From Sandaracinobacteroides hominis (GTDB taxonomy: Bacteria; Pseudomonadota; Alphaproteobacteria; Sphingomonadales; Sphingomonadaceae): a stretch of DNA of 64,000 bases. The position numbers and the translations under genes were made by a program. Position 1 is the stretch's first letter. The number at the start of each line of letters is the position of its first letter. This document shows positions 51,375 to 64,000 of the stretch, piece after piece. The stretch lies in the NCBI RefSeq assembly GCF_016464365.1, contig NZ_JADCUC010000001.1, positions 620,001-684,000 on the forward strand, given 5' to 3'. The notes under the pieces were generated by a model. That model saw only the letters and a list, made by a program, of their open reading frames with translations, ran no database searches and was not told where the DNA came from.

Positions 51375-51386
51375 ATGTTATATCAT
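51375..51386. promoter_or_regulatory. Candidate Zur box upstream of the COG0523 gene
   Basis: ATGTTATATCAT is a near-palindrome (5 of 6 pairs) matching the ATGTTATA half-site of proteobacterial Zur boxes. It lies 35 bp before the start codon. A similar site lies in the divergent promoter at 58.5 kb. Confidence 0.55.
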
Positions 51387-51421
51387 CACTCACAATCATG
51401 CTTGCAGACGCAGGAGCGCAT

Positions 51422-52645
51422 ATGCCCTCATCCGACAACCGCCTGCCCGTCACCGTCATCTCGGGTTTCCTGGGAGCTGGAAAGACGACGCTTTTGAACA
51501 GCATACTGGCCAATCGGGAAGGCCGGCGCGTGGCGGTGATCGTGAACGACATGTCGGAAGTGAACATCGATGCCGACCTTGTGCGGGGAGGAGAGGCAGC
51601 GCTCTCGCGCAGCGAGGAAGCGCTGGTGGAAATGACGAACGGCTGCATCTGCTGCACCCTGCGCGAGGATCTGCTGAAAGAAGTCCGCGCCCTCGCCGAG
51701 GCCGGGCGCTTCGATTATCTGGTGATCGAAAGCACCGGCATATCCGAGCCCCTGCCCGTGGCGGCAACCTTCTCGTTCCGCGACGAGGAGGGGGAATCGC
51801 TTGGCGATGTCGCCAGGCTGGACACGATGGTGACGGTCGTCGACGCCCTGAACCTGTTTGCCGACTATAGCAGCGAGGATTTCCTCTCTGACCGCGGGGA
51901 ATCGCTGGGAGACGACGACAATCGGCGGCTGGTGAGCCTGCTGGTGGAGCAGATCGAGTTTGCCGACGTGATCGTGATCAACAAGGCGGGGGATGTGAGC
52001 CCGTCGCAACTGGCGCGGGTGCAGCAGCTGGTTGCGTCGCTGAATGCCGACGCGCGCATCATCTGTGCAACGCGTGGCCGCGTGCCATTGGATGAGGTGC
52101 TGGCGACGGGGCGCTTCGACGAGGAACATGCCGAGAACCACCCCCTGTGGGCGAAGGAGCTGTATGGCTTTGCCAGCCATCGGCCGGAGACCGAGACCTA
52201 TGGCGTCGAGAGCTTTGTCTATCGCGCGCGACGGCCCTTTGACCCGGCGCTGCTGCACCAGTTCCTGAGCGATGGAGGGCTGGCAAAGGTGCTGAGGGCC
52301 AAGGGCCACTTCTGGCTTGCGACCCGCCCCGATTTTGTCGCCGAACTGGCGGTTGCGGGCCGGCAGACGATGGTCTCCCGGTTGGGCCGGTGGTGGGCTG
52401 CGGTGCCCCGCAACCGATGGCCCGCAGACGACCAGTTCGAGCGGCATGTGCGCAAGAACTGGGATCAGACCTGGGGCGACCGGCGGCAGGAGCTGGTGTT
52501 CATCGGCCTTGAGATGGACGAGGCGGACATCCGCCGCCGGCTGGATTCCTGCCTGGTCGAGGCAGAGGAGTTTTCACCCGAGCCATGGTCTGGCCTCGCG
52601 GATCCATTTCCGCGTTGGGAGGAAGCACAGGCTGTCCCGGCCTAG
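51422..52645 (+). CDS. COG0523 (CobW-like) GTPase, probable zinc metallochaperone
   Basis: The 407-residue G3E GTPase has Walker [17 protein letters not shown] (11-26), the metal-binding CxCC in [13 protein letters not shown], Walker B-like [10 protein letters not shown], and the guanine motif VINKAGDV. A CobW C-terminal domain follows (about 270-380). COG0523 proteins deliver metals; the zinc-linked members sit under Zur. AGGAG precedes the ATG. Its stop shares a CTAG with the convergent ABC ATPase gene. A Zur-box-like site upstream and a DUF1826 gene nearby support zinc. Confidence 0.9.
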
Positions 52646-53418
52646 CCTGCCGGGGGCGCCAGGACAAAGCGGCCGAGATCTGCGGAGAAGCGAACGCCTT
52701 CCGTGTCGAAGGCGCGCCCGATATGCCCCTGGACGATGAGGTCCTGCGACGTCCCCGCCGTCACGGCGCCGGCACCGTCCAGCAGCCAGACTTCATCCGC
52801 CAGCTGCAGCGACAGGTCGAGATCGTGGCTGGAAAGCAGCACGATATTGCCAGTGGCATGGGCATGCCGGCGAAGCAGGCTCATCACCTCGACGCGCCCG
52901 GGAAGATCGAGGAAGGCGGTGATTTCATCGAGGATCATCAGCCTTGGCGCCTGCGCCATCGCACGGGCGATCATCACCCGCTGGCGCTCTCCGTCGGACA
53001 GCGCGTCGAACAGGCGGGCTGCAAAAGCGGTGCTGCCTGTCTGCTGCAGCACGGAGGCGATGATTGCCCTGTCGTCCGCGGAAAGCCGACCCTGCCAGTT
53101 GGTGAAGGGCTGCCGTCCCATCGCGACCACATCATCGACGGTCATGCCCGGGCTGTTCAGCCTTTCCGTCAACACAACCGCGATGCGGCGGGCGCGGCTG
53201 TGCGGGCGCATGGCCGCAATATCGTCGCCGTCCAGCAGCGCACGTCCGGCCGTCGCCGTCTGCAGGCCGGCCAGCGTTCGCATCAGGGTGGATTTCCCTG
53301 CCCCGTTGCGGCCCAGAACACAGATGAAGCGCCCCGGTTCGACAGTCATCGACAGGTTGCCCAGGACGACACCGCGCGGCGGCCCGTAGCCGACGGCCAG
53401 ATCCTTCAGCTGCAGCAT
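52642..53418 (-). CDS. ABC transporter ATP-binding protein (FecE/BtuD type)
   Basis: The 258-residue ATPase has Walker [19 protein letters not shown], the signature [14 protein letters not shown], Walker [15 protein letters not shown] (with Ile for the usual Pro) and the switch SSHDLDLS. It pairs with the FecCD-type permease, whose stop overlaps its start (TGATG). It powers uptake of a metal complex from the periplasm. Confidence 0.92.
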
Positions 53419-63183: not shown

Positions 63184-63836
63184 GTGAGGGCGCCCAGTTG
63201 CAGCCGCTGCCCGAAGCGGTCGCGGATGCGCGCGTCGTGGGTTGCGACCAGCAGCGTCGCCCCCGTCGCCTCGGCGCTTTCGAACAGCAGGTCCATCATG
63301 CGCGCGGCATTTCCGTCATCGAGGGCCGATGTAGGCTCGTCTGCGATCAGCAGCGCCGGCCGTGTCACCAGCGCGCGGGCGATGGCGATCCGCTGGCCTT
63401 CGCCCTGGCTGAGTTCGCGGGGACGCCCATGGGCGCGGTGTGAAAGCCCGGCCAGATCGATCAGCCTGTCCACGTCGGCCGGATCCTGCAGGCGGCGCCC
63501 GATGCGCTGGGCCAGCAGCAGATTTTCCCGAACCGTCAGCGCGGAAACCAGACGCAGCGTCTGGAAGACGAGACCTATGGTCCGCCGGCGCAGGTCATCT
63601 CGGGCGGCGGCGGGCTGCCCCGTCATCCGTTCCCCGGCGATCTCCACATCGCCAGCAACCGGCGTAACCAGGCCGCAGATGATGTTGATGAGGCTGGTCT
63701 TGCCAGAGCCTGACGGCCCGAGAAGCAGGGCATGCCGATGCCGGTCGAGCTGCCAATCGTCGATATCGACGATGGAACGCCCGCCAATGGAATGGCGCAG
63801 CCCCCTCAGCCGGAGCAAGGGCGCGTCCTGAACCAT
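63180..63836 (-). CDS. ABC transporter ATP-binding protein (LolD/MacB type)
   Basis: The 218-residue ATPase has Walker A LLGPSGSGKTSLINIICG, the signature LSQGEGQRIAIARA, Walker B ALLIADEPTSALDD and the switch VATHDARIRD. It pairs with the FtsX-type permease, whose start overlaps its stop (ATGA). ATG giving MVQDAPLLRLRG is chosen; a TTG three codons earlier overlaps the previous stop (TTGA) and is also possible. Confidence 0.92.
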   Translation of the reverse strand: MVQDAPLLRLRGLRHSIGGRSIVDIDDWQLDRHRHALLLGPSGSGKTSLINIICGLVTPVAGDVEIAGERMTGQPAAARDDLRRRTIGLVFQTLRLVSALTVRENLLLAQRIGRRLQDPADVDRLIDLAGLSHRAHGRPRELSQGEGQRIAIARALVTRPALLIADEPTSALDDGNAARMMDLLFESAEATGATLLVATHDARIRDRFGQRLQLGALT

Positions 63837-63841
63837 ATTGC

Positions 63842-64000
63842 TCAACGTGGATAGGAAGCCGTTACCGGCGAGGCTTTTTCAGGTTCCGGGAGGGGATCGG
63901 GATCGCCGGGTGCGCGCGCAATTGCAGAACCTGCGTCTTTATCGTCCGACGTGGAAAACCGGCTCAGAAACGCCTTCCGCGCCCGCTCGGCGGCTGCGAT
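63842..64000 (-). CDS. C-terminal end of an unidentified gene, cut by the right edge
   Basis: On the minus strand a frame enters from the window edge and ends at a TGA 5 bp before the chosen start of the ATPase gene. About 52 residues are visible, from AAERARKAFLSRFSTSDD to EKASPVTASYPR, a charged helix followed by a Pro-rich tail. In related zinc loci a His-rich periplasmic protein gene can stand here, but no His is seen, so the identity is open. It is probably in the same operon. Confidence 0.6.
   Translation of the reverse strand: MAAAERARKAFLSRFSTSDDKDAGSAIARAPGDPDPLPEPEKASPVTASYPR

What the first reader, a model, noticed from the sequence alone, without database searches (positions are those of the whole stretch)
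51375..64000. A compact metal-acquisition locus, probably zinc, joining two import systems under shared control
Seen: a COG0523 GTPase, a FecCD-type ABC importer with binding protein and TonB receptor, DUF1826, a second receptor-like barrel, a methyltransferase, and a LolD/FtsX/DUF3299 set lie side by side with overlapping starts and stops. Established: in other proteobacteria COG0523 and DUF1826 genes are found in Zur regulons. From memory, Pseudomonas aeruginosa PA2911-PA2914 (receptor plus FecCD-type ABC) and PA4063-PA4066 (LolD/FtsX/DUF3299 with a His-rich protein) respond to low zinc. Inference: here both types are fused into one locus. The reduced-plug receptor and the methyltransferase are parts I do not know from those systems.
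Basis: partly seen in the sequence, partly recalled or inferred. Interest (0 to 1): 0.75.

Follow-up and report, generated by a model that had tools for sequence, protein, structure and literature searches.

The report
Zinc-starvation gene locus with odd extras
A sphingomonad-like bacterium carries its zinc-scavenging genes side by side, each group preceded by a sequence that looks like the switch of the zinc-sensing regulator Zur, and the set includes an unusual outer-membrane receptor and a methyltransferase whose jobs are not known.

Summary
The zinc reading is supported; "two import systems" needs correcting. A Zur-box matrix built only from published Caulobacter and Paracoccus sites puts its three best places in 80 kb exactly in the locus's three promoter gaps (22.1, 18.4, 16.7; next 10.4); column-shuffled matrices do so in 1 of 2000 trials. 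No cobalamin riboswitch lies here, though the genome's other FecCD/CobW locus has one. The genome encodes Zur but gave no ZnuA, ZIP or DUF3526 (ZnuHI-type) match. In a genus-mate zigA abuts the DUF3299-FtsX-LolD operon; here an 8.7-kb module lies between them. That operon matches Zrg/PA4064-4066, recently argued to be a MacB-type exporter. Unfamiliar parts: a receptor family without a Pfam plug or visible TonB box, and a methyltransferase that has its own Zur-like box in 3 of 22 relatives. All is sequence inference; no cargo is shown.

The parts
51375..51389 (-). Zur-like box 1, 32 bp before zigA
   Evidence: score 22.1, best place in 80 kb
51422..52645 (+). ZigA-type COG0523 GTPase
   Evidence: NF038288 590.6 bits, cut-off 600
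52642..53418 (-). ABC ATPase of the FecCD-type importer (start chosen by eye)
53418..54452 (-). FecCD permease
   Evidence: PF01032 7.2e-63
54449..55634 (-). Periplasmic binding protein with lipoprotein-like N-terminus, broken into two frames at an A run near 54962-54967; intact copies exist in four relatives
55634..57805 (-). Canonical TonB-dependent receptor with plug and a TonB-box-like N-terminus (read by eye)
57826..58443 (-). DUF1826 protein, first gene of the importer operon
58491..58505 (+). Zur-like box 2, in the divergent DUF1826 / second-barrel promoter
   Evidence: score 16.7, third best place in 80 kb
58521..60584 (+). Second TonB-receptor-like barrel (BARREL2) with reduced plug
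60639..61331 (+). Class I SAM methyltransferase, downstream of BARREL2
61346..61849 (-). DUF3299 (ZrgE / PA4066 type)
   Evidence: (PDB 4hsp = PA4066, E 0.0039)
61846..63183 (-). FtsX/MacB-type permease with His-rich loop
63180..63836 (-). LolD-like ATPase
63842..64000 (-). Small secreted-looking ORF, first gene of the LolD operon; it continues to 64168, and Zur-like box 3 lies at 64175-64189, beyond the window
   Evidence: score 18.4; similar ORF in L146 at 51%

Best explanation
A Zur-controlled zinc-starvation locus. Shown by sequence: gene content, operon packing, three Zur-like boxes, a zur gene elsewhere on the contig, and recurrence of the parts beside Zur-like boxes in relatives. Inferred: with zinc, Zur represses four transcription units; without it they open together. 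The TonB receptor and FecCD-type ABC importer take up a metal, probably zinc bound to a chelator, and stand in for the Caulobacter-type ZnuK/ZnuGHI system that a genus-mate has in this neighbourhood. ZigA hands out scarce zinc. The LolD/FtsX/DUF3299 set is a Zrg/MacB-type helper, import or export unsettled. BARREL2 is an accessory receptor of the same pathway. The methyltransferase is an added enzyme of unknown substrate. In this assembly the importer may be inactive, because its binding-protein gene is frame-broken.
For: Published-site Zur matrix: the top three places in 80 kb are the three promoter gaps; 1 of 2000 column-permuted matrices does the same. Within 1 mismatch of RTGTTATAACAT there are three places in 3.53 Mb; two are here, the third lies at the start of a MerC frame. 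zigA relatives: box of 15 or more within 400 bp upstream in 9 of 13, downstream in 1 of 13. LolD/FtsX/DUF3299-type genes within the fetched 20 kb of zigA in 8 of 13 relatives, DUF1826 in 7 of 13. BARREL2 relatives: box of 15 or more within 6.5 kb upstream in 10 of 42, downstream in 1 of 42 (9 of 51 loci left out for short flanks, one of them, L030, with 18.1 upstream). Genus-mate: ABC ATPase, two DUF3526 permeases and a receptor follow the zigA/LolD cluster, with boxes of 22.4, 22.6 and 22.1 at zigA, the small ORF and the receptor. Zur protein in the genome; no ZnuA, DUF3526 or ZIP match. Elsewhere in the genome GTP cyclohydrolase, a COG0523 and HisI genes lie together, typical Zur-regulon company (PMC2770081, passages).
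Against: No expression or binding data. Box 2 is the weakest (16.7); the best score in 60 Markov simulations of 80 kb was 18.9, their mean best 13.9. At 2 mismatches the simple pattern is rarer than its reversed control (17/17 against 33/26). The binding protein is frame-broken here, and in L031 the receptor-to-ATPase stretch is reduced to remnants while BARREL2 and methyltransferase stay, so the importer may be dispensable. Cargo is not shown: PA2911-2914 is reported to import cobalt-pyochelin. 19 of 22 methyltransferase relatives have no box of 15 or more directly upstream, and 32 of 42 BARREL2 relatives have none in 6.5 kb upstream.
Confidence: 0.78

Rival explanations
1. An iron-siderophore uptake locus under Fur; the neighbouring zinc genes are there by chance.
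For: Receptor and permease score best against siderophore-type models (TonB-siderophor, FhuB, siderophore permease); BARREL2's closest solved folds are FemA, BauA and FhuA.
Against: Zur-like boxes at all three promoter gaps; DUF1826 heads the importer operon and ZigA flanks it; the genus-mate has a ZnuGHI-type system in that neighbourhood. No Fur motif was scanned for, so this is not excluded.
Confidence: 0.07
2. A cobalamin or cobalt locus: CobW-like protein plus BtuCD-like importer.
For: COG0523/CobW and FecCD families also serve B12 loci; PA2911-2914 is reported to import cobalt-pyochelin under Zur (PMC11481552, abstract and part of the discussion).
Against: No Rfam match, hence no cobalamin riboswitch, in the 20 kb of L004 around the locus, while the genome's other CobW + FecCD + receptor locus carries one at 112 bits. 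Cobalt as cargo under Zur control stays open.
Confidence: 0.1
3. A decaying zinc locus: the importer no longer works, and what is kept is ZigA, the MacB-type set, BARREL2 and the methyltransferase.
For: Frame-broken binding protein; remnants of receptor and ATPase in L031 with BARREL2 and methyltransferase kept.
Against: Receptor, permease and ATPase are intact open frames here; the break sits in a homopolymer where one assembly error is possible; no match for the three other importer families searched.
Confidence: 0.25
4. The LolD/FtsX/DUF3299 set exports a chelator (MacB-like) that the FecCD side takes back: an import-export cycle.
For: PMC11481552 proposes this for PA4063-4066 and PA2911-2914 (abstract, section 6 and part 1 of 3 of the discussion read); here the two types stand next to each other.
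Against: No chelator-synthesis, membrane-fusion or TolC gene was recognised in the locus; Vibrio work reports zinc acquisition instead (PMC9817125, passages).
Confidence: 0.3

Closest known systems
Caulobacter crescentus Zur regulon (ZnuK receptor, ZnuGHI ABC-2 type transporter; PMC4176598, passages)
   Same: Alphaproteobacterial Zur box (the znuK box and box 1 share ATGTTATATCAT); receptor plus ABC transporter under Zur; the ZnuA family is not listed for either genome.
   Different: Here the ABC transporter is FecCD type with a binding protein, and DUF3526 is absent. ZigA, DUF1826, BARREL2, methyltransferase and the MacB-type set are added.
Pseudomonas aeruginosa PA2911-PA2914
   Same: TonB receptor, FecCD-type ABC importer and binding protein under a Zur box.
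   Different: The passages read describe no BARREL2, methyltransferase or DUF1826 with it, and it is separate from PA4063-4066. Direct sequence comparison was not done.
Vibrio ZrgABCDE / P. aeruginosa PA4063-PA4066
   Same: LolD-type ATPase, FtsX-type permease and DUF3299 in one operon under Zur; DUF3299 weakly matches PDB 4hsp = PA4066.
   Different: No DUF2796/ZrgA-type protein recognised; a small ORF without Pfam match takes first place, and a His-rich stretch lies inside the permease.
Zur-regulated COG0523 (ZigA/YciC) clusters with DUF1826 (PMC2770081, passages)
   Same: COG0523 GTPase with a CICC motif in one locus with DUF1826.
   Different: The FecCD importer, BARREL2 and methyltransferase neighbours.

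Membership tests
Zur regulon | Zur box in each promoter gap | tested here: met
   three gaps are the three top places; sequence only, box 2 weakest
Zur regulon | Zur protein in the genome | tested here: met
   FUR family; 7dh7 9.8e-24 (named Fur family; Xanthomonas Zur from recall), E. coli Zur 4mtd 1e-11, ahead of PerR and Fur entries
Zur regulon | Derepression on zinc limitation and Zur binding | not testable with these tools
   needs bench work
ZigA (NF038288) | Score over the curated cut-off (600 bits) | tested here: not met
   590.6 bits over all 390 positions; nearest model by far, so 'ZigA-type'
FecCD-type ABC importer (PA2911-2914 like) | Receptor, binding protein, permease and ATPase in one operon | tested here: met
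   the binding protein is frame-broken
FecCD-type ABC importer (PA2911-2914 like) | Same substrate | not testable with these tools
   no transport data
Zrg / PA4063-4066 | LolD-type ATPase, FtsX-type permease and DUF3299 | tested here: met
Zrg / PA4063-4066 | DUF2796 His-rich periplasmic protein (ZrgA/PA4063) | tested here: not met
   the small ORF has no Pfam match up to E 0.01; 2 His in 108 aa
Caulobacter ZnuGHI | DUF3526 ABC-2 permeases | tested here: not met
   none in the genome; of 14 controls only Caulobacter; present in genus-mate G163. That ZnuHI are the DUF3526 proteins is inferred
ZnuABC | ZnuA-family binding protein (PF01297) | tested here: not met
   none in the genome at E 0.001; found in 11 of 14 control genomes
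TonB-dependent receptor (BARREL2) | Receptor barrel fold | tested here: met
TonB-dependent receptor (BARREL2) | Pfam Plug domain | tested here: not met
   no PF07715 at E 0.001; the model aligns from about residue 75, so part of a plug is kept
TonB-dependent receptor (BARREL2) | TonB box | tested here: inconclusive
   none seen by eye in alignment A1; residues 1-95 have pLDDT mostly under 50

The most novel reading that the evidence does not exclude
Sphingomonads run a Zur-controlled chelate pathway not yet described: a receptor class with a cut-down plug and no TonB box works with a canonical TonB receptor, and a Zur-controlled methyltransferase alters the chelator (or frees its metal) after uptake. 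The pathway replaces ZnuABC and ZnuGHI as the cell's zinc supply.
Probability: 0.15. Interest if true: 0.75.

Novelty: new variant of a known kind. Interest (0 to 1): 0.5.

Why it matters
It gives a concrete case in which three importer types searched for (ZnuA, ZIP, DUF3526/ZnuHI type) are all missing and a siderophore-type importer stands in the Zur-boxed locus. It puts the importer side and the disputed MacB/Zrg side under the same kind of box at one place, so the import-or-export question could be tested in one organism. It also names two candidate parts of zinc starvation of unknown role, a plug-reduced receptor family and a methyltransferase.

Tried and rejected
Cobalamin control was tested and set aside: no riboswitch in the locus, one in the genome's other CobW locus. 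A plasmid origin for the module: no megablast match in PLSDB; BARREL2 by tblastn gives 165 plasmid records, 1 of them covering over 80% of the query, at 37.6% identity. A general methyltransferase-zinc link: 3 of 22 relatives have a box of 15 or more directly upstream; in L159, L160 and L163 the gene follows an Rrf2-like gene (Pfam run on the L159 copy only). The methyltransferases of L028 and L029 are not close to the window's. The L028 subfamily is in 6 of 199 genomes at E 1e-45 (12 candidates at most were scored per genome, and a 58% relative in G016, L155, was not listed); two of the six loci have a weak match (14.7, 14.5) that overlaps the probable start. Methyltransferase substrate: nearest models are far below cut-off; left open. 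BARREL2 as a zinc-specific family: rejected as a general rule, since 32 of 42 relatives with enough flank show no box of 15 or more within 6.5 kb upstream, Burkholderiales loci included. Binding-protein fold: not attempted, because the gene is broken. The N-terminal 75 residues of BARREL2 were hardly tested for any fold. The frame-break census sees only same-strand pairs of high GC3 with at most 400 bases of overlap; in seven other stretches of this genome a few pairs without a start in the overlap remained (for example L107:11174-12530), which were not followed up.

Literature: ten searches of the held open-access library. None of the listings, abstracts or passages that I saw describes this gene combination. 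Several searches listed only part of their hits (12 of 21; 8 of 38; 12 of 75), eight papers were opened in part, and subscription papers are mostly not held, so this is no proof of absence from print.
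Full report
WHAT WAS CHECKED. The window is bases 620001-684000 of contig C1 of a 3.53-Mb genome in 21 contigs. The nearest named relatives of its second barrel are Sphingomonadaceae and neighbours. ABC ATPase, permease, binding protein, receptor and DUF1826 form one minus-strand run; BARREL2 and the methyltransferase form a plus-strand run diverging from it; DUF3299, FtsX and LolD form a second minus-strand run whose first gene, a small secreted-looking ORF, starts 168 bp beyond the window.

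The binding protein is split between two frames. One ORF covers the start of the Peripla_BP_2 profile (11-115), the next covers the rest (109-200), and the break lies in an A run near 54962-54967. In L026, L027, L029 and L030 the same protein is one open frame. A simple census of same-strand frame breaks found no other unexplained one in the 64 kb (its limits are told under Tried and rejected). A single assembly error and a true mutation both fit; I cannot tell which.

CONTROL. I built a 15-base matrix from published Zur boxes only: four Caulobacter sites (PMC4176598, Table 1, seen as a passage), used on both strands at half weight, and five Paracoccus sites (PMC5387054, Table 7, seen as a passage). 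Over the window plus the next 16 kb its best three places are the three promoter gaps of this locus: 51375 (22.1), 64175 (18.4) and 58491 (16.7). The best place elsewhere scores 10.4. First-order Markov simulations of the same length had a mean best score of 13.9 and a highest of 18.9 in 60 runs, so the third site alone would not be striking; the placement of all three is. Of 2000 column-permuted matrices, which keep the A+T bias, 1 put its top three places in those gaps, 8 put two and 161 put one. In the whole genome the palindrome RTGTTATAACAT with at most one mismatch occurs at three places; two are here, and the third lies at the start of a MerC frame. Against this, at two mismatches the pattern is rarer than its reversed control (17/17 against 33/26).

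RELATIVES. In 199 genomes of the family, zigA-type genes (E up to 1e-120) occur in 14 including this one. Of the 13 others, 9 have a box of 15 or more within 400 bp upstream, against 1 of 13 downstream. Of the same 13, 8 have genes of the LolD/FtsX/DUF3299 type within the 20 kb fetched and 7 have DUF1826. BARREL2 relatives (E up to 1e-50) occur in 26 of 199 genomes including this one. Of 51 BARREL2 loci, 42 have at least 3 kb on each side; a box of 15 or more lies within 6.5 kb upstream in 10 and downstream in 1. In L078 and L085 BARREL2 stands with a receptor, an ABC ATPase and a DUF3526 permease. Among 14 control genomes DUF3526 is found only in Caulobacter, whose ZnuGHI is described as ABC-2 type; that these are the same proteins is inferred. 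In L026, L027, L029 and L030 the order is receptor, (in L029 a methyltransferase), binding protein, permease, ATPase, BARREL2. In the tree of 22 BARREL2 proteins these four, L031, L028 and the window form one clade with support 100/99. L028's contig starts just before BARREL2, so its importer state is unknown.

THE MODULE. In genus-mate G163 zigA and DUF3299 end tail to tail 44 bp apart (L146). Beyond LolD and the small ORF follow an ABC ATPase, two DUF3526 permeases and a TonB receptor, with boxes of 22.4, 22.6 and 22.1 at zigA, the small ORF and the receptor. In the window the 8.7 kb from the ABC ATPase to the methyltransferase lie between zigA and DUF3299. Insertion here and loss there are both possible. 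The other genus-mate drawn, G101, has neither zigA, BARREL2 nor the methyltransferase at the cut-offs used. The window's genome gave no match for DUF3526, ZnuA or ZIP (found in 1, 11 and 8 of 14 control genomes). Of the inner-membrane importer types considered, only the FecCD type was seen with a Zur-like box, and its binding protein is frame-broken. NRAMP, CorA and Pit types were not searched.

BARREL2 AND METHYLTRANSFERASE. AlphaFold2 with 22 sequences gives a receptor barrel (mean pLDDT 79.8; residues 1-95 mostly below 50). The closest solved structures are FemA, BauA and FhuA. Most alignments begin at about model residue 75, which is FhuA 54 or BtuB 29; a few FhuA and BtuB rows begin at 48-51, in the unreliable part of the model. 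So the TonB-box end of a normal receptor has no sure counterpart. The family keeps a strongly conserved stretch from about residue 84 to 122. The methyltransferase has relatives in 23 of 199 genomes including this one. In 3 of the 22 others it has its own box of 15 or more within 300 bp upstream (G163 15.2, G184 19.0, G013 17.3); in the window it has none of its own and lies behind BARREL2. In L159, L160 and L163 it follows an Rrf2-like gene. In L031 it follows BARREL2 as here, but receptor and importer are reduced to remnants. So BARREL2 and methyltransferase can persist without the importer.

RIVALS. Cobalamin control is disfavoured by the riboswitch test with an internal positive control. 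Iron control was not tested with a Fur motif. The LolD/FtsX/DUF3299 set is reported as Zrg, a zinc uptake system, in Vibrio (PMC9817125, passages) and as a MacB-type exporter working with PA2911-2914 in P. aeruginosa (PMC11481552: outline with abstract, section 6, part 1 of 3 of the discussion, passages). The locus places the two types together, which fits a cycle but does not show one.

VERDICT. A zinc-starvation locus by strong sequence evidence; a new arrangement of mostly known parts, with two parts of unknown role and one broken part. PMC2770081, PMC8561739, PMC6103462 and PMC10563805 were seen as passages only.

Noticed in passing
G000:C19:45892 (L107:9879-10340): A MerC-family frame with a Zur-like box of 22.4 overlapping its listed start, so the real start is probably downstream; MerC-like genes also lie in the fetched stretches of 4 of 13 zigA relatives (L085, L146, L152, L156).
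   Followed up: partly
G000:C1 about 36838-40613 (L114:7839-11614): GTP cyclohydrolase I, a His-rich COG0523, a cysteinyl-tRNA synthetase-like frame (by eye) and HisI together, with a weak box (13.9) in the divergent promoter: a second, classical Zur-type cluster.
   Followed up: partly
L031:8822-9591: Remnants of a receptor (by eye) and of the ABC ATPase directly before BARREL2 in Sphingomonas ginsenosidimutans: the importer part is lost while BARREL2 and methyltransferase remain.
   Followed up: partly
L155:61-2868: In G016 a methyltransferase of another subfamily (58% to one in L029) follows FtsX and DUF3299.
   Followed up: no
L159, L160, L163, just before the methyltransferase: The methyltransferase lies behind an Rrf2-like regulator gene in these three, which suggests a role outside zinc.
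   Followed up: partly
L079, L081, L082, L093, L095, L102: BARREL2 relatives in tandem pairs or triples.
   Followed up: no
L005:1552-7776 (beyond the window end): A very large minus-strand frame, 2074 aa, secreted-looking, next to the locus.
   Followed up: no
L030: A contig filed as Bacillus sp. 2B10 carries this sphingomonad-type locus, so the record is probably misnamed or contaminated.
   Followed up: no
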